Part shown: in pieces, positions 2,575 through 61,980 of the stretch
How the letters are laid out: each line of letters opens with the position of its first letter
Numbering within the stretch: position 1 is the stretch's first letter
Assembly (NCBI GenBank): GCA_021234155.1
Contig: JAJEKV010000020.1
Location: forward strand, 20,699,018 to 20,763,017
Source of the DNA: Isoetes taiwanensis
Lineage: Eukaryota > Streptophyta > Lycopodiopsida > Isoetales > Isoetaceae
Reading direction: 5' to 3'
DNA length: 64,000 bases
Made by a program: the position numbers and the translations under genes
Notes under the pieces: model-generated
The model's database searches: none
Seen by the model: the letters and a program-made list of their open reading frames with translations, nothing else
What the model was told of the DNA's origin: nothing

Positions 2575-2872
2575 TAAATGCGGTTCAGCACCCAGCACCA
2601 GCACCCTTCATACTTTTTTTTCCACCCTTCACCAATTATAGTCTAACATATTTTATGCCCGTTACTTCACATAGACCGTACCCATTCTAATCATAACCTG
2701 CTTACCGCCCACCGTAAGTAATGAATGTGACCCGAAGGGTATCGAATTTTAAATTTGTAAATTGCAACCGTCTGTCTGTTCCCCAACTTTTGCTACTCCA
2801 GCCAAATAGCCCGCGGAGAAGAAGCTTGAGAATCTTCACATTCACTCTAGTATTCCAAAACTCAAACGCACT

Positions 2873-4857
2873 ATGGTGAAGAAGGTTGTTACTCCGCCGG
2901 CTCAACCAGTAATTCTAACGTATGCCATGCGCAGGGTAAGCAAAATGCATTAGCAATTTTGATATGGGCTTAGGGTGCCATGTTAATTTGTTTTTCTTAC
3001 TTTCTTCTAACCCAGAAGGAACGTGCCCCTGAGATCGGACCTGGCTGATTGCCGAACAGAGGAGGACTTTCATGCTTATGCGGGTCTACCAAACGATGGT
3101 GTACATCCCTCTCAATTTCGAACGGATGTCATTTCTGCTGCAGAGTATAATGAGGTTTGGGGTACCAATGGTGTCATTCCCAACAAAACATCAATTGACA
3201 AGGTAAGGCCAGAGCATGAAGAAGCTTTAATTGAACTGCTGAGCAAGATATACCCAGAAGGGTTGAAGAATAGAGAAGTAAGGAAAACGGTTTCCTATCT
3301 ATTTGCAGTCAACAACTGCCAGAGGGCCAAGCAGGATCCAGAAAATTTCAAGGTTAATTGGGCAGCAGTGGCAGCAAAAAGTAGGGCCTATTCGAGCAAG
3401 GTTAAGAGTGAACCCAGCACCAGTGGCCTTGTGAGCATAGCAGAGCCCAGCAAATCACAGCAGACAATAGCACCTGAAAGCATAGCAGAAAGGCCAGCCT
3501 CAGCAGGCACTGGTGTAAAATTAGAAGGGAGGTTGTCATTCAGGAGTACTGCAATGTGCCCAGCAGTGTTCTCAGCTTATGGGAAGAATATTGCCTGCCT
3601 GGAAAGCATGATCCAAGGTATATAAGATGCCTTAAAAATGCAACAAAGTAATCTAGTGTCCAAGAAGGAACTAGTTGCACAATCTCAGGCAAAGGGCACC
3701 TTCTTCCGGCTGCAGAGGGGAAGTTGCAGACTATAAAGGACAATATTGCACGTCTTCAAGCACTGTCAGATCCTAATGCAGGTGCCTCTACTGAGATTCA
3801 TTCTTTGGAGAGGGAGAAAGATATGGCAGAGTATATGCTGAAGTCCCTCCTTGAAGTGGGGGGTGGGCCAATAGATGAAACCATGGTACAAAAGGTGGCT
3901 GCACTAACTGCTGAGATTGCCAACAACGAGTCCCTCCTTGCAAAAGCCCAGCAGCACTTACAGAATGTCACCAGGCTGAGGGAGATGACCAAGAGAAATG
4001 ATCAACTGGTCAGCATCACTCCAATACGATTCCGCTTGCCAATGGGAGATGAGGAGAGATGCTCCACTTGTGGTCTTGCATTCCAGGATGATTACACCCT
4101 CAGCCTGCGGATGAAATGTGGACATCATTATCATGTGAGCTGCCTCAGTTTGCTAATGGAAAAAACATGCTGCCTCGAGTGCTCAGAGACTATTCCTACA
4201 GGGTTCATGCAGGAATTGGGGAAGCTTAATATAGTAAAGCAGGAAGTGTTATATGCTGGAGCATCTCACAAAACTGAGAATAAGATAATTGATGTTGATG
4301 AGCATGTAGCCACAACTCCTGATAGTAACAGGAAAAGGAAACAAGTTAATACACCAAGAAGTAAAAGGACCCCAGGATCAGCTAAGCACAAGTCTACAAG
4401 GGTTCAAACTCCACAGCAAAGACATGGAAAAAAAGGTACATGCCTATTTTCAGGGTCTCAATTTGAATTGGCAACATTAGAAGATGCTGTAAACATTGGA
4501 CAGCAAGCTACCAGCAGTCTGCAGCACACTGCAGCACTTGATAGCACAGTGCTGAAGACACCAACCCATGCAGAATCTAAGGGAGATTCAAGTAGTACTG
4601 ATGATGCTGCCAATTATCTTGTAGTTCCAAATTCTGCAGCTGCCTCTACAAAGGCCTCCTCTAAGTTGCTGCAGGGAAGGAAAACAATGGCGAAGATATC
4701 GACAAGCAGGTTCAGGCAGTCGTTTCCAAGGTCAACAGGTTGACATGGTCAAGGACCAGGAAGGTTGTGGAAGAAGCGAGTGAGGGTGAGTCAGAAGTTG
4801 ATCTTGATGAAGACGTCCCTATAGAAGTAGCATTTGGAAAAAAAAAACAAGGCTAAT
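2873..4857 (+). pseudogene. RING-H2 protein gene of element A (broken)
   Basis: A short first exon (ATG at 2873, GTAAG donor near 2936) is followed by a main exon from about 3015. The product has a conserved N-terminal block (LLSKIYPEGLKNREVR, then FKVNWAAVAAKSRAY), a long coiled coil, and a RING-H2 finger at about 4060-4190: C-S-T-C, then K-C-G-H-H-Y-H-V-S-C, then C-L-E-C, spaced as in E3 ubiquitin ligases. A basic, Thr/Ser/Pro-rich tail follows. Compared with copy B there is a premature stop at about 3623, a frameshift at about 3710-3720 and another near 4735, so this copy looks non-functional. Role by family: possible ubiquitin ligase; target unknown. Confidence 0.75.
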
Positions 4858-5044
4858 GTAATTTTGCCATATGTATTTCAGGCAGGCAAACCTTGATTGC
4901 TCAAGACAACCCTAAACCATCAGCCAAAAGGTTTTTGTTCAAACAATTAATATATTTGATCCCTGTTTTCTTCCACCATGAATGTGCAAATTTTGTTTGG
5001 ATAATTCATTCAACTTAGACTTGAGTAAAAACTTGTCTGCAGAA

Positions 5045-6276
5045 AAAGAAGGCAGCCAATGGTTATACTTAGTGAATCTGATGAAGAAGACAATGCCACT
5101 AAAGGAGTGCCATCACAACCTCTAACATACAAAAGGTGTCTGTTATCCTGTTATATTTCACCTTGTATATTCTCTACAAATTTCAGTTGGTAATTGGAGC
5201 ATATCTTTGCATGCAGGAGAACAAGGTAGGTTGTGAGTGATGAAATGGAGGATAAAGCATGGAAGGCCACTGCAAGGTTTACTGATAGCTAGGAAACACC
5301 AATACATTGGGGGCAGGGAGACACTAATACATATGTATCTGACTATGGCTATCAGCACTCTCCATCATCGGGTAGCAAACCTAAAGCAGAGTCTAGTAGA
5401 TCACAACAACGTCCAGCACATCTCGACAGCACTGCCCAGCACAGTCCAGCACAGCATGGCAGCAGAGTCCAGCACATCTCGCAGCACAGTCCAGCACAAT
5501 GCAGCACACATCGACAGTGGGTGCAAACGTTGAGGGATGGGAACCCAGACGGAACTTGATGGTGCTTGACATAAATGGTGTACTGGCACAGACACAACAG
5601 AGGAGAATGGGCCAAAAAATATTGCCTCCACCTCAAACGAACCATGTTGTAAAAGAAACTGCAAGTAAGTACCTCATTTGCAGACCAGGGTATCATGAGT
5701 TTGTGGAATGGGCACTGCAGAGGTTTGATATTGTGATCTGGAGTGCTTCTCTACTTCGGAACACAAGGGATATGGTGGATGCATTGTTCCCAGATTTGCG
5801 GACCAAATTCTTAAAGGTATATAGTTAAGAGCAGTGCTATGCATGTGAGCATCCAACTAGCATAGTAAAGCAACTTTTTTCCAGGGAGTTGAAGGTTGTA
5901 CTTGAGGATTTTCCTGAATATCATGGTATAATTTTCTTGGTAGATGACAGCCTACACAAAGGGTTTCTAAACCCTGCACACACAACCGTTCCTGTTATGC
6001 CTTTCAAGGGGCAGGAAGAGGAAGACTTTTTGCAGAAGGTTTGTGTGTCCAGCATTGGATTAGTTGTCTTCCTATACAGTTGAAGAAACAATCTCACAGC
6101 TAGACATCATTGATGCATGGTTGCAGAAGGAGACAGTTGATGTGCTGGATTACTATCTCAACAACTATCTTGTCTCGGCCTATTATCTCCTCAATGCTCC
6201 AAAAGAGGTACAAAGGCAGTTGTTGGGCACCATTCCCGAAGACTCTAACCACTCTGAAAACTTCAATGACTCCTGA
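5045..6276 (+). CDS. FCP1/NLI-like HAD phosphatase domain, 3' part of the RING gene in element A
   Basis: Several exons after the RING region encode an FCP1-homology (NLI-interacting factor-like) HAD domain. Visible blocks are LMVLDINGVLAQT (5558-5596), YHEFVEWALQRFDIVIWSAS (about 5692-5750), DMVDALFPDL, and after an intron IIFLVDDSLHKGFLNP (about 5930-5975). In active FCP1 enzymes the first motif is D-x-D-x-T/V. Here the second Asp is Asn, so catalysis is doubtful, while the late acidic pair LVDD is kept. The linker exons at about 5045-5130 and 5217-5400 carry acidic SESDEEDN-type sequence. It probably forms one spliced product with the RING part, but exon limits are uncertain. Confidence 0.65.
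5395..5515. repeat. CAGCAC-rich short repeats inside the RING/FCP1 gene of A
   Basis: Imperfect copies of CCAGCACAG and CAGCACATCTC follow one another here. Copy B has the same type of array at about 61010-61085, with different copy number. The word also crowds the ends of the elements. Confidence 0.75.
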
Positions 6277-6492
6277 AAATACCATTGTACACTAGCCTTT
6301 TGTAATATATATGACTTACTTTATGTAATCTTGAGTATTGATTCCAAGTAATGTCTCTAATACATCATAAAAATTTAAGATAAAGGTCTTCAAAATTTAA
6401 GACAAAGGTCTTCAAAATTTAAGATAAATGCTGAAATGATGAAACAACTAGGTCAAACCATTTTCAACCTTCATATGGCAGGCTGTCAAGGA

Positions 6493-7770
6493 TCATCTGA
6501 TGGGTAGCCCCCTCAAGGGAAAACCTGTTGGTGTGGGAATTTGATTCATCTCAAACTTGATTGCTGTGACATGATGACTGTATTGATAAGTAAGACCTTT
6601 GTTTTGAAGTAGTTCCCAACTACCATTGGGTTGGATAGCATAGTATACACCAGCCAACACATGTTCATCGACATTAAAAGTCTGACCCCAACTATCATGT
6701 ACAATCTTGTCAAGAATATGCCTCGGCTTAACACACTTCACCACATAGAAGTCTGCATTCTCTTGATTGCCCTCCTCGGCTACAACTACAAAGTTGTCAC
6801 CTTCCTCTATGTTTCCACTAAGCCATTCCCCATCACCTTCAAAAAATGCCTCGTCAATTTCGTCATCAAGCTTCATAGGCTTTAGTGTCACATACTTCCA
6901 ATTCTTCAACTTGTGCCTATTCACACAACATGACCAGTTTCCCTTCAAACAGTTACCACAGAAACAACTTAAACCTCTATGAGCCACCCTTGTGGTCGAT
7001 TTGGACATGTATGTCCGGATGCTGTGTATTTCCTTAGTCCCTTCCACCCTGGCACAGTCCAGCCGGTTTGTCCTATCAACATCATCCTTTCCAATTAACC
7101 AGAAGTACCTGCAAAGAGACAGCAACAAGTATTGCAGCTCACAGACAGCATAATACAGCACTACTCATCATATTACAGCAGTTCACAGACAGCACTACTC
7201 AGCACATTACAGCACTACTCAGCACATTACAGCAGTTCATAGACAACATTACTCAACAGAATACAGCAGATGAAAGGATAATACCTTTTGATGTCCCCGT
7301 TGTTGGTACCTTCATTCCAACGAGTTGCGAATTCACAGGCATCAGCAGCACCCCTAAATCTCACCCCATCATACTTGAGCTGCTCTCTAGTGAATGCCCC
7401 TATAAGGACCGCCCCTTGTCCATCGTGCTCTCCCTTATCATGGACTGTCCAAAAGAAATTCCACACTATTTCCTTCCCTAGCTCATGGTGATATCTTGGT
7501 AGGAAATAGAATGGCCGGGCAGATTTGAATTGGCTAGAACAACCATCTGACCAAACTATATGCCTGGAGAATTCTACACCATTTGATACAAGCCATGAAT
7601 TGTGCTTCCTAAGACAGTGCTTCACAAAAAGAGTGTCATGAATCTTGTCATCACTTAAGTAAAAATGGGTTTCCTTCAATAGCTTTCTGATCCCAGAGCT
7701 TTTGTCTATCCTATACGTGATGTGGACGAGAATTGTTATCTAGTCATTGTACCAGTGCTGGTTCTGAACC
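6493..7770 (-). pseudogene. Transposase of element A, C-terminal two thirds (5' part is at 22085-23698)
   Basis: The exon at about 7300-7770 encodes the catalytic block: HFYLSDDKIHDTLFVKHCL, IVWSDGCSSQFKSARPFYF, then KGEHDGQGAVLIGAF. After an intron (about 7115-7285), the exon at 6493-7112 carries a Cys-rich block (SCFCGNC, C-C-V-N, NWKYVTLKP), an acidic stretch and a conserved tail. The D-x-A-E-N-Y, S-D-G and G-E-H-D-G motifs are likely parts of a DDE/D catalytic core; this is inference from their position and conservation in A, B and C. The glycines of the HGKG motif are altered here (VHDKG). The gene is split by the insertion at 7771-22084. The stop lies near the stop of the converging FCP1 gene. 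Confidence 0.7.
7120..7270. repeat. CAGCA/CTCAGCACATTA repeats in the transposase intron of A
   Basis: The intron contains repeated words such as TTACAGCA, CTCAGCACA and GTTCACAGACAGCA. The matching intron of copy B (about 62645-62755) has the same composition with a different arrangement. Confidence 0.7.
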
Positions 7771-7859
7771 TCCCTTTGTATTATTATTATTTTTTTTTTT
7801 TTGAAGGAATGAAAGGTTTATATTCATAATATAGGAAGTATTACATCAGGATCCCATCT

Positions 7860-9501
7860 TGTGACGCTCCCTGCTAAACGTACGGCGCCCGGCCGTACAC
7901 TCGGCAGGAAATCCCCCATCCGGCTCAACAACCGCATGGGCCCTTCGTCTACCCCGCACTCTGAGGTGACTCTTAGTGCGGGAAGGGAACACGAAGGTGT
8001 CTTGCGCGCCCTTCCCCTATGGGCTCCTATAACAGCGGAAGCGATAACACGTCAGAACTAGCATCAACATATACAAATACTACCTCGAAGGGTAGTGCAT
8101 CACACATAAACCAAGGCAAAGATGATAATCACGAACCATAAAACATGAGAGCTCCTACCCCGCTCGGACTGTGGGAGGATGACCGACCGGCTAGGCCTCA
8201 AGATAGAGCGCGACCGAGTCATGGCAATGGCGGGGGCGGCATAGAACAATGGCTAGGGTTGACCACTCCATCCGCCCCTCACATTGCATACTTTGCAAAT
8301 GGGCTAGATCGGGCTCGACAGGACTCTAGCCTTCCTGATCACGCAATCCCATGGCATCACCCATCCGGGACTACTCCGGGTTGCATCTCCCCGTCCGATG
8401 AGGCGGGAAGGGTTGCATCTCCCCTTCCCGGATCTAGAGGTGCGTGGGCGGCTAGAGAATCGTGGGCGACACCGCATTCGCACTGCAGGCCAACCCCCAA
8501 AGCGAGAGCCAAGCCAACACTTGCGCTCTCGAGAGGCGGCAACACCATTGCCCCTGGAGAGGTGTCGGACCCATGCTCGGCCCATGCAGTGACCCGACCA
8601 TAAGCCTAGCCCACTATGGGATCCCCCGGCCCCCCACTCGGCGGGGATCCTCCCTCCACTTTCCCTCTAGCCCCAAGTATGCGGTGCTGAGTCATATCAT
8701 AGCCTCAATAGCTGGGTGGGCTCCTATGCACAGCCGCAACTAATAGGAACTAAGGGATCTACTCTAGGAGCATACTACATATGGCTCTAGGGTCTCTACC
8801 CCCTTCCCAATACAAGAGGAGCAAACATGATCAACCATCATCACATAATCATCACATCATGAGAATAATCATAAGAAGAACATCTTAACCTAATCATACA
8901 ACTAACTAATGGTTAGGGTTCCTTGATTAGGGTTCAAGATGTTGAATATGGGTTCTAGGATGGCTCTACTCTAGATACAAGATACTAGCACATCTGGAAT
9001 GCTAATTCCAGATGAGCTATCACAACTACTATCCTACATACCTGCTCCTGAAGCTCTCCCTCCAGATCCGTGTGCCTCCATGGTCTCCGACTCACGAGAT
9101 GCCGCTCCTACTCCAAGAACGAGTTCTACCCCGGCGGGCTGCTTTGCACCGGTCCTATGCCACGACAAAACGCGATGTTCAAAAACGGGGTTCGAGCAGT
9201 AGGTGAGTCTCCTCGGGTGCTAGGGCTGGAAAGAGGTCTAGGGTTAGGGTTTATGCCTATATAAGTTAGGTCCACCTAGGATGCCACGTGGCACCAATCG
9301 GGTGAGTCCTGTGTGGCGGTGCCCCAATAGGTCAAGGCCACGTGGATAATGGCTTAACCTATGGTTGGCTAAGTTATGAGAATAACTTAGCCATGCCCCC
9401 TAGTGCCACAACCTATGGTATACAAGGCTATGAAGATAGACTTGTATAGTGACGGATCCAGAATATAATTATTTATGGCGTATATTCCCCGGACCGTCAC
9501 A
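7860..9501 (-). repeat. 3' LTR of the gypsy element
   Basis: It runs from TGTGACGC to CCGTCACA and matches 19397-21035 along its length. Differences are mostly small indels in GC-rich spots. A polypurine tract (TGGGGGAGAA on the minus strand, about 9502-9512) sits at its inner side, which fixes it as the 3' LTR. Confidence 0.92.
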
Positions 9502-10357
9502 TTCTCCCCCAGGACAATGCTTTGTCCCTCGGCATTAAGCTAAGGTGACGATCCTACCTTATGCCCGCAAAACATCATCATGTCATAACCTTTAATTTAG
9601 TTTAGCAATCAAGTTTTATTAGTTAAAGGTCAAAATTTAGGCTATATTTGTACTTATACAAAATTATATAGCCTTAACACCGTATTTCTTATAATAATTC
9701 AAAATACTATTATAAGAGTTATTAGGGTTCATAATCTAAATTATGGCTCCCCCTATCTTCTCGTAACGCGCTCCTCGTTGAAGTCCTCCTTCTACTTGCC
9801 TGCAAAAGGAGCACATTACGTTAGTTTAGTTAATAATTTGTGGTTTTAGGGGACCACCCCTTACCTCCTTGAGCCGAACCAACTTGGCTCAAGGTTGTCC
9901 TAATACCTTGCCCAAGATCATGGCCCTTTCGGATTTGAGCTTAGGGATCATTTAAGATGCTTCCATCATTGCCCATGATCGAGTGCTACCTTGTACACGA
10001 TCCCCCGGATCGAGTACACCCCAGTGCATCATGCCCCGAGGGTTTCAGCTAGGGAACGTCTCACGATCCCATCATCGCGCATGATCACTTTAACCTTCAC
10101 CATGACCCTCCTACGGCCCCAGTGTGCGTATCCCGCATCGTGGCATAGAGATCATCCGATCGATGTCCCATCATCGCCCACCATGCCTCATTCCTCACTC
10201 ACATGACCCTAATGGTCATGCGCACCTCTTGGTGCGTGTGGCCTAGAGAATGCCCTAAAGGCGTATCCCATCATCGCCCACACGATCCAAGGTTCTGGCA
10301 CATGCACCCTAGTAACTAGAATGCATGCGCCAAAGCTTAAAACTAACTAACAAAATA
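9502..10357 (-). other. Non-coding 3' internal region of the gypsy element
   Basis: This lies between the end of pol (10358) and the 3' LTR. No protein is recognisable. It contains repeated words of the type CCCATCATCGCCCA. The polypurine tract is at its left edge. Confidence 0.6.
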
Positions 10358-11116
10358 CTAGCTAACCACCGGAAAGTCGGGTTCCACCAAGCCTGGGAGA
10401 CGACTTCGCCCATCAAACTCCTTCATAAACTCTGGGTATTGCTTCTCCAAGTCTTGCTTCAATACCCATGTCGCATCTTCCACGGGTAAGTGCTTCCACT
10501 TAACCAAATACTGGAGGAACTGAGACCTCCTAGTCTTCTTGAATGACTTATCAAGAAGCAATTCAGGCACTATTTCTACTTGCTCCTCCGTCATTTCCAA
10601 CAAGGTTGGAGTATCCAAAACCTCCTCAGGGTTAGGATTGTGCCTTTTTAATAAACTTACGTGGAAGACCTTGTGAACCTTGAGATGGGCTGGAAGATCC
10701 AACTTGTAGGCTTGAGAGCCCACTCTCTCCAAAATCTTGAACGGACCAGCCCACCTAGGGGCAAGCTTCTTGCAGCTCCCAATCCGCAGCTTGGCTTGCT
10801 TCACCTTGATCTTCAACCAAACGGTATCGCCTACCTTGAACTCTCTTACGGTCCTGTGCTTGTCGGCTACACTCTTCTGCCGACTTCTTGCTGCCAATAA
10901 GTAACCCCTTACTTCTTCTACTAGCTGCTGCATATCCCCTAACATCTGCTGGGACACTTCTACCTTGGACCGCGAGATTGTGCCGGTATCCGGGGTTAAG
11001 CTTGGTACGTAATTTACCATGAAAGGAGACATCCGAGATGACTCACCTTGGCAATTGTTGTGGCCGAATTCCACCAAGTGGATGTACTCATCCCACTTGG
11101 ACCGCTTGTTCCACAC
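10358..11116 (-). CDS. Gypsy integrase C-terminal domain and chromodomain
   Basis: This 252-residue frame starts inside the integrase core (residues WDEYIHLVEFGHNN). It continues with the connector typical of gypsy integrases (FKVGDTVWLKIK, LAPRWAGPFKILERVG, FHVSLLKRHNP). The last about 60 residues look like a chromodomain (QYLVKWKHLPVEDATWV). In chromoviruses this domain binds modified histone H3 and steers integration to chromatin. That the chromodomain sits in the same element as an H3-like protein is notable. Confidence 0.85.
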   Translation of the reverse strand: MWNKRSKWDEYIHLVEFGHNNCQGESSRMSPFMVNYVPSLTPDTGTISRSKVEVSQQMLGDMQQLVEEVRGYLLAARSRQKSVADKHRTVREFKVGDTVWLKIKVKQAKLRIGSCKKLAPRWAGPFKILERVGSQAYKLDLPAHLKVHKVFHVSLLKRHNPNPEEVLDTPTLLEMTEEQVEIVPELLLDKSFKKTRRSQFLQYLVKWKHLPVEDATWVLKQDLEKQYPEFMKEFDGRSRLPGLVEPDFPVVS

Positions 11117-11539
11117 ATAACTTCAAGCATATCTTCAATGATCCGATTCGGCCTCTCCGTCCGCCATCTGTTTGGGGATGATATGCCGTGCTCATGGAGA
11201 GCTTCGTGCGAATGGTGCTAAAGAGATCCCGCCAAAAGGCACTCATAAACTTAGAATCTCTATCGATATTATCTCCCGGCATGCCATGGAGTCTGAAAAT
11301 CTCCTTACAAATAACTTGGCAGTATCTAATGCGGTGTCAGTAGTCTTGCAAGGCACAAAATGTGCCATCTTAGATAACTTATCTACGACAACCATCAATG
11401 CGTCCTTGCCTCGAAGAGTTCTAGGGAGACCTGTGATGAAATCCATGCTTATGACCTCCCACTTTGCATTTGGCACCCCCAATGGCTCAAGAGCACTGAA
11501 TCGGGTTGCTCTGCCTTGGTCTCTGCGACATAACCGCAA
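11088..11539 (-). pseudogene. Gypsy integrase catalytic core, frameshifted
   Basis: Two overlapping frames hold the core: the first catalytic Asp in [11 protein letters not shown], the second in DRDSKFMSAFW, then STAYHPQTDG. The region expected to hold the catalytic Glu is out of register after a frameshift near 11150. This copy of integrase is therefore probably inactive unless the indels are sequencing errors. Confidence 0.8.
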
Positions 11540-12777
11540 TCCCGAATATATGCAGCTATCTGCCTCTTCATTCCTGGCCAGAAGTAGCTACTTCGAATCT
11601 TGAAATAGGTCTTCATGAAGCCAGCATGCCCTGCTATTGGGCTGTTATGTGTGTCATGAAGAATTAGCTTCCTTACCCCTGATGATTCGGGCACACACAA
11701 CTTATGCTTGTGATACAACAAAGTTGCCTTCCTTCTTATAATGCTTGAAGGCTTCCCCTCCTTATCTGTTGCGGCTTCCTTGGAAAGACTTTTCCATACC
11801 TCCTTGAAGTCCACATCCGCTGGCAAGGACTCTTCAATCTTCTTGCCAAACTCACTCGAAAGAGTGGAAATCGCATTACAATCGCCCTTGTCCAAAATGG
11901 TCTCCCCGGAGAGGGCATCTGCTACAACATTAAGCTTACCAGGCTTATATACAATATCAAAATCATACTCCTCAAGGAATTCCATCCACCTCCTTTGCCT
12001 TAAGTTGAGGGAGTGGTCGGGTGAAGAGATCTTGAAGGCTCGTTGATCGGTATCCAACCAAACTTCCTTCCCGGCCAGATAATGCCTCCATATCCTCAAT
12101 GCCCTGACAATGGCTAGCAGCTCCTGATCATGGGTTGGGTAGCGTTGCTCGGCGTCGTTCATCTTCTTCGAGTCGTAGGCGACTACCCTTCCTTCTTGCA
12201 TCAAGACTGCCCCTGTTGCTATCTTGCTTGCATCTGTTGCTACCAACTTATCTTTACTCGGATCCGGAAGAACAAGCACTGGTGCTGTTGTTAAGGCCTC
12301 TTTAAGCTTCTCAAAAGAAGCTTGGACTTTCTCTAACCAATGGCTAGTCCAATCCTTAATCTTCTTGGCCTTAGTGAGGTCCGACAGAGGGGACGCCCAC
12401 TTAGCAAAGTCCTTCACGAACTTTCTGTAATATCCCGCCAACCCGAGAAAGCTTCTTACTTCTGCCACATTCCTTGGAGCTGGCCAATCAACTATTGCCT
12501 CAATCTTAGATGGATCTGTGGAGATTCCCTCGGATGTTACTACGTGCCCCAAATACTCCACTCGGCCTGTTGCAAAGTGGCACTTAGAGAGCTTCCCATA
12601 CAACCGATGACGTCTCAACTTCTCCAACACTTTCCTGAGATGCTGACAATGCTCCTCAAGGGACTTGCTGTCGATTAGGATGTCGTCGAAGAAGACAATA
12701 ACAAACTCATCCAAGAAGTCTCTGAAGATGTCGTTCATGAGGCGCATAAACGTTCTTTGGAGCATTCGATAGTCCAA
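11449..12777 (-). CDS. Gypsy reverse transcriptase (palm to thumb), RNase H and integrase zinc region
   Basis: The 442-residue frame opens in the RT palm. The catalytic motif reads VFFDDIL, the usual Y-x-D-D position with Phe instead of Tyr-Val. Next come [11 protein letters not shown] and [11 protein letters not shown]. RNase H follows ([25 protein letters not shown], then DTDQRAF). The segment [12 protein letters not shown] marks the integrase HHCC region, in which one Cys-x2-Cys pair is damaged. The true start is upstream, in the frameshifted part at 12778-13150. Confidence 0.9.
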
Positions 12778-13406
12778 AGGGCATTATCAGAAACTCAAAA
12801 TGACCATACCGCTAAAGCGGTCTTATGGATATCCTCTTCTTTTTATTCTTATCCGATGGTATCCTCGACCTCAAATCAATTTTAGAGAATACCTTTGCTC
12901 CTTGTAATCGGTCCATTAGATCATCGCCCCCTTGGCAATGCATACTTGTTCTTTATCGTCGCTTATTAAGTCGGGCGATAGTCTATGCACATTCTTAAGC
13001 TCCCATCTTTCTTCTTTACAAAGAGTATAGGTGCTCCGAAGGAGACACACTTTGTGCTCTTATAAATCCAAGCTCGAGCAATTCCTCGAAGCCGTTTCTT
13101 GAGCTCAATCAATTACAGGGTGCTCATTCTATATGGCCTTCTTGGTAGGCTTCAGATCCCGAGCCAATGTGATCTCACATTCCACACCCCTATAAGGTGG
13201 CGTGCCGGTTTCATCCGAAATACATCCTTGAACTCAAAATAAGCCTTGCTATCTCGCCTTTGGCCCCTTTGGGTCATTTCCCTCCGCTTGCACGGCTCAA
13301 CCGATTCCATCCTCAAGATGTAGTCCACCTTATTCTTTTCTATACTCTTCCTTAGCCGCTTCAAAGAAATACACCGCATGGGAGAATCTAGCTTCTTACC
13401 TTTCAC
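12778..13406 (-). pseudogene. Frameshifted N-terminal part of gypsy reverse transcriptase
   Basis: Fragments in changing frames are readable: YFEFKDVF (linker before RT), then GAPILFVKK and [11 protein letters not shown] (RT fingers), followed by VFSKIDLR. They appear in the correct order but in different frames with stops between them. This stretch is the most damaged part of pol. Confidence 0.7.
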
Positions 13407-13619
13407 TATCGGTTTGTTGCCATCCGTGCCGCCATGGTGACTTCATTCCGGTCGCAATCAATCATGGCTTTGGTGGCTTCAAAAATTCCATCCCCACTAT
13501 CGGATCATATCTTCCATGTCCATGACTTCGCTCCCCATCGGCCACTTAGCCCCACTAAGGTCTATGTCAAAGGTGATCCTCCTCCCCTTAGTGTGCCGAA
13601 TGGCCGCCGCTTGCCATAG

Positions 13620-13765
13620 CTACGGCCTTGGCTTAGACTTCAATACCTTGTTCTTCATTAGAGCGACCAATCTAGGAGATGCAAAATTATGAGAGCTACC
13701 AGTATCTATGAGGACTACATAAGGATTACTATCTATGATCCCATCCGCCCGCGATGATGACAAAT
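13620..13765 (-). pseudogene. Gypsy aspartic protease region
   Basis: The active-site segment VLIDTGSSHNFASPRLV is readable on the minus strand at about 13660-13720. Its position between the zinc knuckle and RT is as expected for a Ty3/gypsy polyprotein. The surrounding protease sequence is split by indels. Confidence 0.75.
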
Positions 13766-13774
13766 CGTGATTCT

Positions 13775-15031
13775 CTATATCACCGTCTCAATGTTTGCAC
13801 ATATGTGGCACTCACCATCTATGAAGTCCCGCCCTCCCCGCTGGTCGTCGTCCTCGTCATTCGTTGGGGAGTCCCAATCCAAGAGTTCTGCCAAGGCTGA
13901 CTGCATGACGAATGGACAATCATGTGTTCGGTGCCCTGGCTGGAAGCACCTGAAGCATAACTTTTTCTCAATGCATTCCTGTCTCTTTTCCTTCGGCAAA
14001 CTGTCTAGGAGACGCTTAAGAGCACTGCCCCCTGATGCATTCTGTGGCTTACGGTCCCCAAAAGCTTTGTTCTGACCCTTACCTTGCTGCTGACTCCCAC
14101 GATGGTGTAGGCTGGCTGATTGCTTACCCCGATATTGCCCCCGATCTTTGCACAACTCTTACCCCTGAAGGTTGACTGTTTCTCTGCTGGAGTTGCTGGT
14201 GCCTCTTCCAAACTTATAGCTTTATCTTCGGCCTGTGCAACTGACTTCGGGTTGATTGCTCTAACAAGCCTCTTGATATTGCTGTTCAACCCCTCAATGT
14301 AAGTATCCACGGCTTGCCTCTCTGAGACTCCAGGAACATGCAGCCTGAGCCTCATAAATTCTTCGGTATACTTAGCCACTGATAAGCTACCCTGATTCAA
14401 CCTGTAAAACTGTTGAATCTGTCTACTAGTATGAGATCTTGGCACATAGTGCTTCGGAAGGAAAGCCTTCTTTGAAGGTCTTAAACCTGCAATTGTTCCT
14501 CTTCAGCTTGTTGGACTTAGCATATCCCTTCCACCAGATCCTTGCCGGTCCAATAAGGTTAGCTGTAGCAACTTTCCCTATGTCCTTGTCTTTCATACCG
14601 TATGAGTTGCCAAATTCTTCCATTTCATCAAGCCATGCTTCAGCCTCCATGCCTGATCTGTCTTTCCCTGAGAACTGGTCGAGCTTCCTTGTCTTCCATA
14701 CATTGCTCATAGCACTATCCACCTTTTTCTGATAGTCATCTGTCTTTCTTGCTCTTTTCCTTGCTTTAGGTGTGCCCGACTGACTGTCGGAGCCAGAGCT
14801 GTCCTCACTGGAAGAGCTATCTGATGAGCTGGAGCTAGATGATGATGGACTCCTGGTTCTCCTCTTCCTTCTCCTATCCCTGACGTTCCCCTGGTTGCCC
14901 TCCCCTTCCTGCTGAGGGACTTCGTCACCACCCGGAAAACAAGGTGGAGGTGGAGGACCATCTTCCTGTGCATTCATGAGAGGTGTCGCCCAGTTGATGA
15001 GATGTTGCATTTGGTTCCTCATCTGCACCAA
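13775..15031 (-). pseudogene. Gypsy gag (capsid and CCHC zinc knuckle), in three overlapping frames
   Basis: The frame 14426-15031 holds a Ser/Arg-rich N-terminus and the start of the capsid domain (FSGKDRSGMEAEAWLDEMEE, ARIWWKGY). The frame 14005-14445 continues it (YTEEFMRLRLHVPGVSE). The frame 13775-14155 carries one CCHC knuckle, C-F-R-C-F-Q-P-G-H-R-T-H-D-C. The three pieces imply two frameshifts. No gag-pol stop is evident between knuckle and protease. Confidence 0.85.
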
Positions 15032-15379
15032 CCTTGGCGTTGGGACTCACCTGGTGACATATCCTGCTCAAAATCTTCTTGTTCTCTGCCAAACAAGTTC
15101 CTTGGTACCCAATTGCGTGGTCGGTGCTGGTCTTGAGATCCTGCACTTGAGTTCCTTGCTGCAAGGATTGATCATCAATACATTTTATTTGGGTTAGATG
15201 TTGATCAATTTTACTTGCAATTGAATTATCTTTAGTTATAAGAAATCATACAAAGCCTTACATTGACAAAACAGTTAATAGTCATTAATACATAAGGATT
15301 ACATGATAAGGTAGATATATCTTAGCATAATGGGTACACGAAACATTTAGCACAAAACTTAAGAAAATTTCACAATTAT
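15032..15379 (-). other. Spacer between gag and the unknown reading frame of the gypsy element
   Basis: AT-rich sequence with no recognised motif. On the minus strand it lies just upstream of gag and may serve as its leader. Confidence 0.4.
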
Positions 15380-16920
15380 TCAGTGGCCTCCCGAAAGCCT
15401 GAAGAAGTTCTTGACATCCCTGAATCGGAGGCCTTTGCCGAGGTTGCGCAAGATGTTCCTCGTCGATCTTCCTTCAAGTGCTCGGGCCATCTCCGGTTCC
15501 GGAAGTTCCGGTGCTGTTGCTGCTACCACTGAAAGTGTTGCGTCCCTAAGGTGCCCTCTCGCAAAGTCGAGGCAATGGAGCCTTGACGCCTCGTTGAAAA
15601 GAATGATGTGATCGGCATGGGCGTATATCTTCGAGTGCTGCCCGAAGCCCGAGAGTGCTATGAGAAGTGCCACGGATTCTTCCCCCCTTGGGTTGAACTC
15701 CTTGTGGAAGACTATCATTTGCCCTTGACTGAGGGCTGGAAGATAGTAGCGGCGTCGCCCTTCCCTTCCCTACGCCTCGCGATCCAAAGGTGCCCTTCCT
15801 CGGAAGCCGCTTCACCGTAGGCATCCACGCCATCGGGTCTTCATGATCCCTCCACATCTTTGGTTGCATTGTCCAAGTTGATGCTTCTTTGGACCCTTCC
15901 CTCATGCTCCCCGCTCGAACCGGTCTGCTTGAGCTTGGGCCCTTCCCCGGTTTGTAGAGTGTGCTCAGTATCTGCTTTGGAACTCCTCCTCCGAGATGAT
16001 AGGTTCCTGGCTGCCGATAGATCTCCCTTATCTGGCGATAGGTCTGCTATGTCCCGACATTGTCTCCCCAAAGATAAGAGTGTCTCTCCGCCACTCCCTT
16101 GGAATCTCCCGGTATGAGTAGTCGATGAGGTGCATGCTCTTCCCGTGTGCTATCATGCCCAAGAGCTCGTCGATTCAAGACCTTGTTCCCGACAAGGGAC
16201 AAGTTGAGGATGTCATTCGCAAAAATGTACTCCCCGGTCGATGACTATCGGTGACAAAAGCCGTGATGCCGACCGGTGGGTCTTAGAGTCGTTCTCATGT
16301 CGTCGTCATGCCTCAACGCATACCTCTGCATTCTTGTTGCCTCCCTGCTCTCCCATTCGGGTTCGGCTCCCCTAGCTGCTCGTAGTCTTCATGGATCTCA
16401 GAGAGATGGTGCCCCGGCGTCGTGCCATAGTATTCGTGAGGGGAGGACTCTATATTCAGGATTTGATCCTGGGCCCTACGGGTATCAAGTGGCGCTAAGT
16501 CTAAGGGCTGAACAGAGGGTTCTCCTACTCTGTTGATTGACTTATAGTGCATGAAGAGGGCAAGGGCTGTCTGAGCTGAAAGGTACCTATGCCTATTATG
16601 TCTCCCGCAGTCATGTAATCGGGCATGGTCCTAGTCCTATCCCATAGCTGCTTCTTGCCTTTGGATCCTGCCAACTCTCGACCTAAGGCTTGGGTAAGTG
16701 TCTCAAGAGAAACCCAATTCCCTCCCCTAGGAGGCAGTCTAACTTCCCAAGGCAGGACCTGCTGGTCATATTGGCACATAATGTCCGTGTAGTAGGGTGT
16801 TCTAGTCAAGGTTGCATGAAGATCAAACAAGTGATCAAACACAGAGAAGGCTTGATCTACAGGAAGCTGATGGATATGGCTTGCAGCATTGTACCATCTC
16901 TCGAAGTTGCTGGGCGCCAT
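15380..16920 (-). pseudogene. Unknown second extra reading frame of the gypsy element
   Basis: An open frame starts at 16920 (MAPSNFERWYNAASHIHQLP) and runs 131 residues. It is continued by fragments in other frames at 16313-16552, 15841-16071, 15546-15905 and 15380-15718, all on the element's coding strand. The last piece has a globular-looking stretch (IALSGFGQHSKIYAHADHII). I recognise no domain. The order of pieces suggests one protein of about 450-500 residues broken by indels, lying between the H3-like gene and gag. It could be an accessory protein or another captured host gene. Confidence 0.45.
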
Positions 16921-17208
16921 TGAGTAGGCAAGGGTGTAGAAAATGGCTTACAAAGATCAGTTGAGGTTCAGAAAATCGCCTAAGGGGCTGGGAGCAGTTC
17001 TGTAGAAGGAAAAATGGCAAATGGGACCTATTTTTATAGACTATGGGTGACCTCGAGGTTCGTGCAAAAAGGTGCCTACCTAAGACGGCCTTGGTTCTAT
17101 GGCTCTGGGTGTCCAAATGAACTACCATGAAGTGCAAACTTAAGCAAAACAAAGCAAGAAACACTACATGGCAATTTGTTGGATCAAATTTGGCTAATTT
17201 GGGCCAAA

Positions 17209-17500
17209 GATGGGCTGACCCGGGTGAATCCGCGCGGATGGCCTCCGCGTCGCGGACGCAGACGCGTTTGGCGCGGTCTCACCCGGTTGGCCTGTTTTGG
17301 GCCAATTTTTGGTCATTTCTGGGAATTTAAAGATGCTAATATGGCTAATTGGGCCAATTCTAACCTAACTAGCAACTTATTTTGAGCAAAACTGACATCT
17401 AAAAGCATGATTTTGGGCCCGGTCCGGGTGAATCCAGCTGTAGCTTAGCCAGCGTCGGGACGCTTGAGGGCCTTAGGGCGGTCTCACCCGGTTGGCCCGA
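17209..17500. repeat. Two related hairpins between the H3-like frame and the second frame
   Basis: At about 17218-17295, CCGGGTGAATCCGCGC is followed by GCGCGGTCTCACCCGG, which pair as a long stem with two mismatches around a GC-rich loop. A second, less perfect copy lies at about 17421-17493 with the same outer arms. Both are flanked by TTGGGCC words. This is a direct reading of the sequence; a role in RNA structure or translation control of the element is inference. Confidence 0.65.
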
Positions 17501-17710
17501 TTTTCAGCATTTTGATGATTTTTTTGCCAAAAATTTTGTTGTAGTCATGATTTCTAGGGTGTTTCTAGACATGCTATGAAGAATTCTACCACAATTGGGT
17601 TCTATTTCCTATATTTCAAGCATACAACATTTTTCTAATTTGCAGAGGAAAAGTAACTTTTATATTAATAAAAACACAATTACATGGGAGTTTCTCTTTT
17701 CTAACAAAAT

Positions 17711-18823
17711 TTACAAAATTTGAGGCCTAAGGCCTCTCTGCGAATCCTCAGCTAAGTGAATATCCTTAGGCATAAGGGTAACTCTCTTAGCATGGATAGC
17801 GCAGAGGTTCCCTTCCTCGAAAGCTGGACCAGCTGCGCCGGAAGCCTCTTGCGGGGCCGGGTCATTAGAGGGGTAACCCTATAATCGGGTCCGAAACCTT
17901 CGCAACACCTCTCTAAGGAGGCGCTCGAGGGCGCCTTCCTTATCGAGATTCGTGCACATCCGGAAGTGCGAATCTCCCTAAACACCCGGCGTATGTGTTT
18001 GTTCGGCCCGTGGTGAACCCTCTTGGGTTTTTCCGGCCTAGGTGGGGGTGGCTTGGGCTGGTTCTTCTTGCCCGGCCGCCCTCCCCGACGGCCAGCTACC
18101 TCCCCGGCGGCAATACCACTCATTGTACCTCGTCCAGCGGCGAAGGTACTCCTTATATCTACCATCTTCCGGCTTAAACTTCGCGGTCCTGGCTGGAGCC
18201 GAATGCCCGCCCCCCCCTTTTTGCTTCTTCACCACCTTAGGTGGTTCCGGCCACTTGGGGTAGGGTGGCCTAGCGTCGGGGTCCTGCTGCCCCTCCTCCT
18301 CCTCTTCCTCCACTTGTGGCTCCTCCTCCGGCCGGGGCTCTTCAATAACGACGGTCCGGCGAGGCCCGTCGTTCCTTCTCTTCGTACGCCTTTCTTGCTC
18401 CCTCAGCTCCCTTTCCCGCTCCCGCTTCTTTCTGGCGGCCCTCTCCTCTGGCCACTCCGCGACTTTTTCCTTCCCCTTCTTTTTGGGCACTGAAGGGCCC
18501 GCTTCTTCGGTCGGTGGTGGTGCTTGCTCCTCCACACGTTCTTCAACTTGTTCCTCCACCTCGGTCTGCGAGGCCCCGGCGGGTGCGACTTCGTCCGTTC
18601 TTTGTGTTCCCCGCCGGCGAGGGGCTGCTCTTGGGGGCTGCTCGGCATCGTGGCTTCGCTCGGTCGCTGCCGCTGCCGCCGCTTGAGGGCGATTCCCTCG
18701 CCCTCCGGGCTTCGGTAGAAGGTGCTCAGGAACTTTCTTCACGTGCCGACCCGCTGCTACCTGCGCCATAGAGAGGGTGGGGCGCTCGCCAAACTTCCTA
18801 GCTGTTTGTTTGGTGCGTGCCAT
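17711..18823 (-). CDS. Retrotransposon-borne histone H3-like protein (H3 tail, long linker, H3 fold; frame-disrupted)
   Basis: Starting at the ATG at 18823, the first residues are [10 protein letters not shown], identical to H3 positions 1-9. A linker of roughly 200 residues follows, rich in Glu, Arg, Lys and Pro. The last part is a diverged histone fold. REIR of the alpha-N helix is at 17968-17979. [10 protein letters not shown] of alpha-1 is at about 17894-17923. [20 protein letters not shown], the alpha-2/alpha-3 region that is almost canonical, is at about 17753-17809. The stop is at 17711-17713. The fold lies in the same register as the tail, except for a short stretch (about 18100-17968) read one frame off, and one in-frame TAG at 17879-17881. 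It sits between primer site and gag on the coding strand. H3 is 136 residues; this would be about 370. A captured H3 variant is the best reading. Confidence 0.8.
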
Positions 18824-19380
18824 ATCTTGTGGTTCAGGAATGGGTGACGTAAGGCTGAGCAAGAGAGAGGTGAAGGTGAAGGGTTGGAGAGAGAGAATGA
18901 GGTGTCAGATATTTAAAAAGGAGGGTCCCTGGGAATATTCTCCTACCATAATTACCCCTATTTATTAGCCCCCCTTATTAATTACACCATATTTAGCAAT
19001 TATTTAACTATTAATGTATAAATTAAACCTATATTAATTAATATTATACCTTAAATTTTCGAATTTTTCTAATGGTTTGAAGTGCTAATTATGAATTTGC
19101 GCCATTTTTCACCTGGGTCTCCGATTGGCATGATTCTTCGACCCATTTTAGGTGAAATTTGATGCAGATGCATAATTTTCACTCCAAATTTACTAGAAGA
19201 TGAGTTTGACTCACTCAACTTTCGTCTAACACTTAACCTAAGTCCTGACCCACTACCTAGGAGAAAATTTTTTCCCCCATTTTCGCGGTTCGATGGTGGA
19301 AATGTTTATTTCACACCCCTATAGGCCTGTTAGACTACTTTATGGTTATGGTCAGTGCTAGTTCTTGGTCAACCAAGAAC
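18824..19380 (-). other. Leader of the gypsy element between primer site and H3-like gene
   Basis: About 550 bp, AT-rich near 18960-19080, with no open frame of note. It would form the 5' untranslated leader of the element RNA. Confidence 0.55.
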
Positions 19381-19383
19381 ATC

Positions 19384-19396
19384 GCTCTGATACCAT
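19384..19396 (-). promoter_or_regulatory. Primer-binding site (initiator Met-tRNA type)
   Basis: On the minus strand the bases next to the 5' LTR read ATGGTATCAGAGC, containing TGGTATCAGAGC, the usual plant initiator Met-tRNA complement. It identifies 19397-21035 as the 5' LTR. Confidence 0.9.
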
Positions 19397-21035
19397 TGTG
19401 ACGCTCCCGCTAAACGTCTGGGCCCGCCGCACACACTCGGAAATCCCCATCCGGCTCAACAACCGCATGGGCCCTTTCGTCTACCCCGCGACTCGAGGTG
19501 ACTCTTAGTGCGGAAGGGAAACATGAAGGTGTCTTGCGCGCCCTTCCCCTATGGGCTCCTATAACGTGAGGCGATAACCGCGTCGAAACTAGCATCAACA
19601 TATACAAATACTACCTCGAAGGGTAGTGCATCACACATAAACCAAGGCAAAGATGATAATCACGAACCATAAAACATGAGAGCTCCTACCCCTGCTCGGA
19701 CTCGTGGAGGATGGATGGTGACCGCTAGGCCTCAAGATAGAGCGCAGCACCGGAGTCATGGCAATGGCGGGGCTGGCATAGAACAATGGCTAGGGTTGAC
19801 CACTCCATCCGCCCCTCCTGCATGCATACTTTGCAAATGGGCTAGATCAGGCTCGACAGACTCTAGCCTTCCTGGATCGCAATCCCATGGCATCACCCAT
19901 CTGGGACTACTCCAGGTTGCATCTCCCCGGGTCCGATGAGGCGGGAAGGGTTGCATCTCCCTTCCCGGGATCTAGAGGTGCCGTGGGGCGGCTAGAGAAT
20001 CGTGGCGACACACGCGATGCATGCTCAACCAACCCCAAAAACGAGAGCCAAGCCAACACTTGCGGCTCTCGGGAGGCGAGGCAACACCATTGCCCCAGAG
20101 GTGTCGGACCCATGCTCGCCCCACGGTGACCGACCATAAGCCTAGCCCACTATGGGATCCCCCGAAGCCCCCACTCGGCGGGGATCCTCCCTCCACTTTC
20201 CCTCTAGCCCCAAGTATCCGGTGCTGAGTCATATCATAGCCTCAATAGCCTGGTGGGCTCCTATGCACAGGCCGCAACTAATAGGAACTAAGGGATCTAC
20301 TCTAGGAGCATACTACATATGGCTCTAGGTCTCTACCCCCCTTCCCAATACAAGAGGAGCAAACATGATCAACCATCATCACATAATCATCACATCATGA
20401 GAATAATCATAAGAAGAACATCTTAACCTAATCATACAACTAACTAATGGTTAGGGTTCCTTGATTAGGGTTCAAGATGTTGAATATGGGTTCTAGGATG
20501 GCTCTACTCTAGATACAAGATACTAGCACATCTGGAATGCTAATTCCAGATGAGCTATCACAACTACTATCCTACATACCTGCTCCCCCGGCTCTCCCTC
20601 CAGATCCGTGTGCCTCCATGGTCTCCGACTCACGAGATGCCGCTCCTACTCCAAGAACGAGTTCTACCCTGCTGGGGCTGCTGCACCAGTCTATGCCACA
20701 ACAAACGATGTTCGAAACGGGGTTTCGAACGAGTAGGTGAGTCTCTGGGTGCTAGGGCTGGAAAGAGGTCTAGGGTTAGGGTTTATGCCTATATAAGTTA
20801 GGTCCACCTAGGATGCCACGTGGCACCAATCGGGTGAGTCCTGTGTGGCGGTGCCCCAATAGGTCAAGGCCACGTGGATAATGGCTTAACCTATGGTTGG
20901 CTAAGTTATGAGAATAACTTAGCCATGCCCCCTAGTGCCACAACCTATAGTATACAAGGCTATGAAGATAGACTTGTATAGTGACGGATCCAGGAATATA
21001 CGTATTTATGACGTATATTCCCCTGGACCGTCACA
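19397..21035 (-). repeat. 5' LTR of the gypsy element
   Basis: It begins TGTGACG and ends CGTCACA on the plus strand and matches 7860-9501. The AT-rich half (about 20280-20600 against 8740-9060) is almost identical, while the GC-rich parts show many 1-4 base indels. Promoter and polyadenylation signals of the element should lie here, but I could not place them. Confidence 0.92.
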
Positions 21036-22084
21036 CATCTGGATCAGATTTGTATTCAGCACAAAAATACAAATATTTCAATACACAAAAAAAGATTACT
21101 ATAGGAGTAAACTCAACATCTTCGTCTTTCTTGTGCAAAGAAATATTTAAAGCTCTAGAAGCCAGATATAACTAATTGCACAAAGAAACTCTTCAGAATA
21201 AAGATGATTAGAAAAGAAACCAAAGTAACCTAAGAAGCTGCCACTCTTCTCAGGGAAGCAACCATTGCTTCCAAGAAGACCAAAACTGCAAGTAAATCAA
21301 CAATCTGTGAGATTGCTTTAGATGCTGCATTGTCGGGATGTGAAACAGTCAGCCTGAGTTGGTTAGACACATAGCCCAACTGCCAAGACTCCTCCCTTAA
21401 GTCTGGTTTATGATGTAAAGGCTTCTTCCTGTACACAAATAAATCCCTAGCTCGGCTCTCTAAATTAATCTCATTTCTTGTAGAAAGCCTGTAGAAATTG
21501 GATCATATACTCTGTTCTTTCCAAGAACCAGCTCTATACCTCTCCACCAGCAAGAGAGAAGAAAAGAAAGGAAAGGGTTCTTCCATCCGACCTTAAAATT
21601 TGGTTTAAGATATGAACTGCCAGCAAACATTACAACCTAAAGCTGCTTTTCTTAATAGCCTTGCGAAAATTTTGCTCCACCTTATAAGCTACTGTGCAAT
21701 TTCGGTGTGATCTAAAATAATAATAGAGGAAACTGCTGTTGCCAGATCCTTCCAAAATTATAAAGAATCATAATGCTTCCGCATTAGAGCAAAAATACCA
21801 CGTTAATGGTACTTGCAGGACCAAAAAGACCGCCAAGAAGCAGCTCTAAGCACAAAGAAACCAGCAATTCTTATTTACCAGAAATCTTGAAGACAAAATG
21901 TCAGATCCCCAACTGGCACCCAAATTTTGACCTTGAATATCTCCTTTGCCGTAGCAGTGCCGGATCAGAGAGACGAGGGCGGCCTCCTCTCTCCTGTATC
22001 TGCCCTAGGCGCAGACGATAGCGCCAAGAAACGACATCCGTTCCAATCACCCCCGAAACTTTTATATGCAAATCCCTTTGTATT

Positions 22085-24024: not shown

Positions 24025-25160
24025 TCAATTCAGAGACAATGTGACACTCGTATGGATCGAGGCAATGTAATGAATCTGTGCCTTTTCATAGGCAGATAAT
24101 TTAAAACCCTCAATCATAACAACCTTAAAGGCATGAGAAGAAGCAGCATCAACATGAAGAGTAGAAGGAACAATAGATGCAGCTAATGGTGCTAACGACA
24201 ACACCATCGCAAGTGGAGGTAGAGCATCTTCCATAGCTGGGGAATGCAAAACAATTGGCAAAGGTTGATCATGAATAGATGAAGAAATAACAATGGAAGC
24301 TTGAAGCTGAAGAGATCGGGAAGGTTGAACAGATGCCTAAGATGCATGAGGGCCACAATGGAAGCTAGCAAAGGCCTCCTTATCATGAAACAAACGAGCT
24401 AATTCTGGACCATTCAAAGGCTTAAGATCCAACTTCTTATACCAAGGCCCACTTTTTATGACTATACACACTGGTAAGGACGAGTCTACTTGCATAGAAA
24501 CACAAATTCTCAGACCATTCATGATAGAGTGTGAAATACGAAACCCAAGTCCAGTTGCAATTGCTACGAAAAACTGATGAGCCATTAGACTTGGAGGAAA
24601 ATTAAGTATTGAGAACCAACAAGGTATATTTAATGCACGAACCATATCTGGTGTAAATCCAAAAGAGTAATACTGGTGCATTATACATTCCCCGCCAAGT
24701 GGATCAATCCTTTTAGATACCAGAGTGTCCACTGCATCAATATTATCAAACATAATTAGAACAAAGTTTTTTTGTGAACAGCTTGATGGAATGAGCTGAA
24801 GGCATCGCAAAAGACGAGAAAACCAAACACAAAATCGTGAGAAATCTAAGTAGACACCATTAAAATAGCCATGCACTGCACAAAAGAATAAGTTCTCAGG
24901 ACACGTAATATAAGCTTGATGATCTACCTCAACCACTAAGATACCAAAGGCTTGAACTATGTTCTGACAATCAAACTGATAAAATATGTCATCTGGAGGT
25001 AATTGTTATTGAAGCTGAGCCTGGTGAGCTATCATTGTGTCCAAACTTGGTGTCGACTCATCCTTACTCCTTTCAAGCAACACCTATAAAGCAGTTGATC
25101 CCCTAGCCTTCCTAGATGCAATATGTAGCAAAATAACAGGGGGTTCCAGGGGGATTTGAT
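24025..25160 (-). pseudogene. LINE ORF1-like (DUF4283-type) fragment
   Basis: The 199-residue frame at 24337-24936 has the layout of the plant LINE/retrotransposon DUF4283 domain: a central PLGGECIMHQYYSFGFTPD, then a Trp-containing strand (RALNIPCWFSILNFP), a helix (AIATGLGF) and a final strand (SSLPVCIVIKSG). The assignment rests on pattern only. No zinc knuckle or reverse transcriptase follows, so at best it is an ORF1 fragment. Confidence 0.4.
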
Positions 25161-45994: not shown

Positions 45995-46078
45995 ACTCTA
46001 AATTTCTGCATTTCCTTTGACACCATAAGAATTTGAAAAATGTTCTCCAAACAGGTCAATAACCTTGTCTTTAACATT

Positions 46079-61869: not shown

Positions 61870-61980
61870 ATATATGACTTGCTTTTTGTAAAATGTCTCT
61901 AATACATCAAAATTTAAGATAAAGGTCTTCAAAATATAAAATAAATGCTGAAATGATAAAACAACTAGGTCAAACCATTT

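What the first reader, a model, noticed from the sequence alone, without database searches (positions are those of the whole stretch)
17711..18823. Histone H3-like gene carried inside a chromovirus retrotransposon
Seen: ATG followed by exactly ARTKQTARK, then a charged linker, then the C-terminal H3 fold with near-canonical CAIHAKRVT and MPKDI, on the coding strand between primer site and gag, inside an element with a 5-bp target duplication and two LTRs. Known: chromovirus integrases end in chromodomains that read modified H3; H3 K4 and K9 lie within the copied tail. Inference: the element may have captured an H3 variant to package its DNA, to mark its own chromatin, or to mimic the H3 tail towards host readers and writers. 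I know of no described LTR element with an H3 gene, but could not search.
Basis: partly seen in the sequence, partly recalled or inferred. Interest (0 to 1): 0.95.

Follow-up and report, generated by a model that had tools for sequence, protein, structure and literature searches.

The report
Histone H3-like gene inside plant retrotransposon
An old copy of a plant jumping gene carries, between its primer site and its coat-protein gene, a decayed gene that begins with the exact first residues of histone H3 and ends with an H3 fold; this would be very unusual cargo, but other copies could not be examined, so whether the whole family carries it is unknown.

Summary
A 13.2-kb chromovirus (7860-21035, minus strand; LTRs 92.4% identical, CATCT duplication, primer site, chromodomain) carries an H3-like gene at 18823-17711. 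It starts [10 protein letters not shown], runs 261 codons unbroken through a charged linker, and ends in H3 homology (Pfam Histone 2e-8; PDB H3 3.5e-9). The alphaN-to-loop-1 part, not seen by phmmer, scores above 600 of 600 shuffles in a frameshift-tolerant alignment. The gene is broken (at least two frame changes and a stop), about as much as pol. The fold is nearer to H3 than to CENH3.

At about 52% identity the fold is far more diverged than roughly 4% change per site since insertion allows, so it was not a fresh canonical H3 capture. No poly-A tail or significant flanking repeat was found.

Family-wide presence, selection and expression remain untested: the genome search did not complete. 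Ten searches of open papers showed no histone-bearing LTR element. Best reading: an element-borne, H3-derived accessory gene acting on chromatin; mechanism inferred.

The parts
7860..21035 (-). whole chromovirus element (13,176 bp), flanked by CATCT target duplication (7855-7859 and 21036-21040)
19397..21035 (-). 5' LTR
   Evidence: 92.4% identical to the other LTR in the BLASTN alignment; K2P 0.081, 26 gap events in a global alignment
19380..19395 (-). primer-binding site TGGTATCAGAGCGATG, one base after the 5' LTR (tRNA-Met type, name recalled)
   Evidence: sequence
18038..18823 (-). H3-like gene, tail tip [10 protein letters not shown] and charged linker, 261 codons plus stop, no break
   Evidence: open in 2 of 2000 dinucleotide shuffles
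17929..18033 (-). H3-like alphaN to start of alpha1, in another frame
   Evidence: score 53; 0 of 300 and 0 of 300 shuffles reach it; not seen by phmmer; dropped from the alignment at frameshift penalties of 26 or more
17714..17944 (-). H3-like alpha1-loop1-alpha2-loop2-alpha3 and remnant of the C-terminus, back in the frame of the tail, with one TAG
15380..16947 (-). second coding-like stretch between the H3-like gene and gag; no Pfam match in four frames; no convincing PDB match in the two frames tried; function unknown
13775..15046 (-). gag (Ty3 capsid / Retrotrans_gag domain; zinc knuckle below the Pfam cut-off), broken
10358..13442 (-). pol: RT, RNase H, integrase with C-terminal chromodomain, broken (4-12 frame changes and 0-4 stops per 1.9-2.3 kb against six homologues)
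   Evidence: the upper limit 13442 is the end of a reading frame, not a tested domain boundary
9502..9510 (-). purine tract GGGGGAGAA beside the 3' LTR
   Evidence: sequence
7860..9501 (-). 3' LTR

Best explanation
The element carries an accessory gene derived from histone H3, placed between primer site and gag and probably translated from the LTR transcript. Its ancestral product would have been a nuclear protein of about 370 residues: the H3 tail tip (A1 to K9, so K4 and K9 present, S10 replaced by F), a highly charged linker of about 250 residues in place of H3 residues 10 to about 36, and an H3 fold that keeps the end of alpha2, loop2 and alpha3, by which H3 meets H4 and a second H3. Shown: the sequence, its place, that the fold is nearer H3 than CENH3, and that its divergence predates this insertion. 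Inferred: that the gene was intact when the element last moved; that the product enters chromatin, or (H3-H4) complexes, on or near the element, displaying a K4/K9 tip without K14, K27 or K36, so that host readers and writers of H3 are engaged or diverted and silencing is weakened. I put about 0.55 on 'element-borne accessory H3-like gene of the lineage' and about 0.3 on this chromatin-variant or decoy action.
For: Exact ARTKQTARK after ATG and a 261-codon open frame. H3 fold. Tail and alpha1-alpha3 lie in one overall frame of 371 codons. The gene is one GC-rich block (61% over 17750-18830) between poorer immediate flanks (40% and 35%; wider profile). Fold identity with canonical H3 is 48 of 92 aligned positions at a lenient frameshift penalty, 46 of 89 at a strict one, and 14 of 16 in the loop2-alpha3 segment, while the LTRs imply about 4% change per copy since insertion (K2P 0.081 between them); so the divergence is older than the insertion. 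Sites kept are those more conserved among divergent H3s: 12 of 20000 permutations reach the difference (the set was found with this query, so partly circular), 529 of 20000 with three recalled CENH3/CENP-A sequences. Decay of the gene is of the same order as that of pol. No A run over 7 in the 0.77 kb downstream and no flanking repeat beyond chance, so no sign of a later retrogene insertion. A captured accessory gene kept and active in vitro is known in another plant Gypsy lineage (PMC9289625, passages and one section).
Against: One copy only, and the gene is broken in it. No relative of tail plus linker among predicted proteins: 0 of 3065 candidates at E up to 0.1. With the fold, 18 hits: the four best are named as mammalian proteins; of the other 14, which I read, some (P0011, P0013, P0016) also have a long charged region before an H3 fold, so such long-tailed H3s exist elsewhere and the host may have had one to lend. 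Lenient alignments put up to 11 frame changes into 17700-18100, while tail plus linker is one open frame, which would fit a fold already dying before the last move. The alphaN part adds only 3 points at the strict penalty of 22 and is dropped at 26. The independent conservation test is weak. There is no expression evidence. The chromodomain looks like type II, so a link between integrase and H3K9 methylation is not supported.
Confidence: 0.55

Rival explanations
1. Passive cargo: one element, or a small subfamily, picked up the transcript of an already divergent, long-tailed host H3 variant gene by template switching; the gene has no role for the element.
For: Host-derived extra domains in plant LTR elements are known (PMC9289625, section). 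Only one copy is seen. Long H3-like proteins with charged N-terminal regions exist in environmental data (P0011, P0013, P0016). The composition differs from the immediate flanks.
Against: The open frame from the tail over 261 codons survived in a copy with K2P 0.081 between its LTRs. No protein with this linker was found in the protein database.
Confidence: 0.27
2. Tail-only mimic: the working product is the unbroken tail plus linker (261 aa); the H3 fold had already lost its use before this copy inserted, and the protein acts as a soluble decoy for readers and writers of the H3 tip.
For: No break in 786 bases of tail plus linker, against at least one frame change within the fold, one at its border and a stop in about 300 bases. 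The first nine tail residues are kept exactly.
Against: The loop2-alpha3 segment is still 14 of 16 identical to H3, and at the same strict penalty the breaks are within what pol shows, so no separate decay of the fold is needed.
Confidence: 0.13
3. A host H3 pseudogene inserted by chance into this one copy after its integration.
For: Only one copy could be examined.
Against: Sense orientation, no poly-A tail, no significant flanking duplication, the fold much more diverged than the element's age allows, and an open non-H3 linker of about 250 codons after the tail tip.
Confidence: 0.04
4. Chance resemblance or misreading.
For: The linker is low-complexity, where weak matches arise easily; the alphaN part is weak on its own.
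Against: Pfam 2e-8, PDB 3.5e-9, exact nine-residue tail in the same overall frame, 0 of 600 shuffles for the alphaN part.
Confidence: 0.01

Closest known systems
Phalaenopsis Gypsy elements with an AlkB-type (2-ODD) accessory ORF (PMC9289625)
   Same: Large plant Ty3/Gypsy LTR element with an extra ORF that holds a host-type regulatory domain.
   Different: The cargo there is an RNA demethylase, kept in many consensus sequences and active in vitro, in Tat/Ogre-like elements; here the cargo is an H3-like protein in a chromovirus, seen in one broken copy.
Additional ORFs (aORFs) of plant LTR retrotransposons (PMC7264820)
   Same: Extra ORF inside the element; sense orientation and a place upstream of gag-pol are among those known (passage).
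   Different: The most frequent place is between pol and the 3' LTR, and most aORFs lack known domains (passage of PMC9289625); the word histone does not occur in the main text of that review.
Plant CENH3 and other H3 variants with long N-terminal tails
   Same: H3 fold with a replaced, longer tail.
   Different: The fold scores higher with H3.1 (136) and H3.3 (129) than with rice or Arabidopsis CENH3 (93, 81), needs no loop-1 gap against H3, and the tail tip is that of canonical H3 (reference sequences recalled).
Environmental long H3-like proteins P0011, P0013, P0016
   Same: Long charged region, then an H3 fold.
   Different: No exact ARTKQTARK tip; organisms and any link to mobile elements unknown.
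H3-tail mimics that engage H3 readers or writers (such as the SNAG tail of SNAIL; recalled)
   Same: Free N-terminus resembling the H3 tip.
   Different: Here nine residues are identical and an H3 fold follows; no binding was tested.

Membership tests
LTR retrotransposon | two LTRs with TG...CA ends, target duplication, primer site, purine tract | tested here: met
Chromovirus (Ty3/Gypsy) | order RT-RNaseH-integrase, chromodomain at the integrase C-terminus | tested here: met
   Pfam RVT_1, RT_RNaseH, Integrase_H2C2, SH3_Tf2-1, Chromo 1.9e-11
Chromovirus with type I (H3K9me-binding) chromodomain | three aromatic cage residues | tested here: not met
   Aligned with a recalled HP1 chromodomain, the first and third cage positions are I and L and only W is kept (cage positions recalled); PMC6317226 describes type II so (passages)
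Histone H3 | H3 fold with alphaN, alpha1-3 | tested here: met
   alphaN weakly; broken in this copy
Histone H3 | canonical N-terminal tail, residues 1-36 | tested here: not met
   residues 1-9 identical, the rest replaced by a long charged linker
CENH3 | longer loop 1, CENH3-like fold | tested here: not met
   H3-like spacing, higher score with H3 (recalled references; a score comparison, no tree was built)
Conserved accessory ORF of a retroelement lineage | present and under purifying selection in several copies | not testable with these tools
   The genome search did not complete (16 calls)

The most novel reading that the evidence does not exclude
A lineage of plant chromoviruses encodes its own core-histone variant: an H3 with the authentic K4/K9 tip set on a long charged arm, kept by selection, which the element uses to build or disguise its own chromatin or to divert the host machinery that reads and writes H3.
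Probability: 0.33. Interest if true: 0.95.

Novelty: new variant of a known kind. Interest (0 to 1): 0.76.

Why it matters
Plant hosts silence retrotransposons largely through methylation of H3K9. A retrotransposon that carries its own H3 would attack or exploit that system at its substrate, and would be, as far as my ten searches of open papers show, the first LTR element reported with a core histone gene. It would also give a natural H3 with a K4/K9 tip but without K27 and K36, useful for asking which tail marks silencing needs.

Tried and rejected
Chance match: rejected. Later retrogene insertion: looked for a poly-A tail and flanking repeats; the longest shared word was 11 bases, reached or exceeded in 22 of 200 shuffles, so no support. 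CENH3 origin: lower scores. Relatives: protein search with tail plus linker, no hit among 3065 candidates; with the fold, 18 hits among 125 candidates, none recognisably from a plant element; I read 14 of the 18. Viral contigs: 337 pattern matches, none a relative. Host identity: the pol search gave at best 51% identity (6517 proteins at E up to 1e-40 among 7977 scored, best 120 listed); the organisms named in those 120 rows are flowering plants except one bacterial label, so the host is probably a plant of a lineage not closely represented; species not determined. Second copy in the window: none. tRNA and Rfam at gathering threshold: nothing. Solved structures for two of the four frames of the second coding-like stretch: weak matches to designed TPR proteins (best E 0.0045, no stretch passing on its own), and none. 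The alphaN piece alone gives no H3 match by phmmer. Ten paper searches (four of them returned no paper; of the others I saw listings and starts of abstracts, 15 of 32 papers) showed no LTR element with a histone gene. PMC9289625 (passages and one section): the section names 9 of its 15 extra domains, no histone among them, and both main-text uses of the word histone were seen and concern other matters; its figure and supplementary chart were not seen. PMC7264820, PMC6431247 and PMC11963269 (word search of the main text) do not hold the word histone; in PMC6317226 and PMC9033089 (passages) histones appear only as targets of modification.

Full report
What is there. The window holds a chromovirus on the minus strand at 7860-21035: LTRs of 1642 and 1639 bp, 92.4% identical (K2P 0.081 with 26 gap events), the same five bases CATCT on both sides, a TGGTATCAGAGC primer site one base after the 5' LTR and a purine tract before the 3' LTR. 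Pfam finds Ty3 capsid and gag, RT, RNase H, integrase and a chromodomain in the right order. Gag and pol are broken; against six pol homologues out of the 120 listed, spans of 1.9 to 2.3 kb hold 4 to 12 frame changes and 0 to 4 stops.

The H3-like gene. Between primer site and gag a gene begins at 18823 with [10 protein letters not shown], identical to H3 through K9, followed by F in place of S10. The frame stays open for 261 codons through a charged linker; 2 of 2000 dinucleotide shuffles of the same stretch stay open. The stretch between linker and alpha1 is read in another frame. phmmer alone sees no H3 there; a frameshift-tolerant alignment with a lenient penalty scores 53 where the best of 300 DNA and 300 protein shuffles reach 50 and 49. 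At a strict penalty of 22 this part adds only 3 points (134 against 131) and at 26 it is dropped, so the alphaN part is the least certain. The gene is broken by at least two frame changes and one stop; one frame change lies within the fold at strict penalties, up to 11 in 17700-18100 at the most lenient.

Was it a working gene when this copy inserted? The LTRs imply about 4% change per copy since insertion, about 9% at protein level (my estimate). The fold is identical to canonical H3 at 48 of 92 aligned positions at the lenient penalty and 46 of 89 at the strict one, so most of the divergence is older than the insertion. The unchanged sites are those that divergent H3s also keep: 12 of 20000 permutations reach the observed difference with 13 database H3s, but those were found with this query and the test is partly circular; with three recalled CENH3/CENP-A sequences it is 529 of 20000, which is suggestive only. 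The loop2-alpha3 segment is 14 of 16 identical, and the residues I know as H113, R116 and D123, which hold two H3 molecules together, are kept in the aligned segment (their role is recalled). Breaks in the gene are about as dense as in pol. These facts fit a gene that was intact, or nearly so, at the last move, but do not prove it.

Captured by the element, or inserted later? It is in sense, in one GC-rich block (61%) between immediate flanks of 40% and 35%, with no A run over 7 bases downstream and no flanking repeat beyond chance. A long open linker between tail tip and fold is not what a canonical H3 pseudogene would have. A later insertion is unlikely. Whether one copy or a lineage carries the gene could not be tested: the genome search did not answer in 16 tries. 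The protein database gave no hit for tail plus linker; the fold gave 18 hits, of which I read 14: none is recognisably from an element, but P0011, P0013 and P0016 have a long charged region before an H3 fold, which shows that such proteins exist elsewhere and leaves room for capture of an already long-tailed host H3.

How it may work. I commit to a nuclear H3-like product that either enters nucleosomes or (H3-H4) complexes, or diverts H3 readers and writers, with the K4/K9 tip on a long arm and without K14, K27 and K36. This is inference from anatomy. A tail-only decoy is a live rival, because tail and linker are unbroken while the fold is not.

Known or new. Extra ORFs in plant LTR elements are known in several places of the element (PMC7264820, passages), and one, an AlkB-type RNA demethylase in Phalaenopsis, is active in vitro (PMC9289625, passages and one section). 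That paper's section on its screen of 121 angiosperm genomes names 9 of 15 extra domains, no histone among them; the figure and supplementary chart were not seen. Ten searches of open-access papers showed no LTR element with a histone gene (listings only). Subscription literature, preprints outside the library and repeat databases were not searched. I class it as a new variant of a known kind: accessory host-derived ORF, new cargo. The interest score is high because of the cargo, held down by the single broken copy.

Noticed in passing
15380-16947 (minus): Second coding-like stretch between the H3-like gene and gag, in several broken frames, without Pfam match; could be another accessory ORF of the element.
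   Followed up: partly
32850-34744 (+): Two adjoining frames: ubiquitin domains and most of a PI3/PI4 kinase domain in the first, the rest of the kinase domain in the second. Resembles a plant PI4K-gamma gene (name recalled); the split may be a break or an intron.
   Followed up: partly
2627-7787 and 58299-63254 (+): Two copies, about 87-88% identical, of a 5-kb repeat with a 586-aa frame in one (58687-60447) that shows weak RING-finger similarity (E 0.0018, below the Pfam cut-off).
   Followed up: partly
36249-37559, 44733-46078, 50132-53869: A cluster of 98-99.8% identical repeats about 0.6-1.3 kb long, probably young nested elements or their LTRs.
   Followed up: no
17268-17298 and 17473-17503: Short direct repeat (87% over 31 nt) just downstream of the end of the H3-like gene.
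   Followed up: no
24337-24936 (minus): 199-aa frame with a weak DUF4283 match (E 0.00036, below cut-off), a domain I recall from plants.
   Followed up: no
P0008, P0014 and P0016 (database proteins): Environmental H3-like proteins: P0008 and P0014 have an exact ARTKQTARK tip, a diverged tail and a long lysine-rich C-terminal extension; P0016 has a long charged region before its H3 fold. Possibly unusual H3 classes.
   Followed up: no
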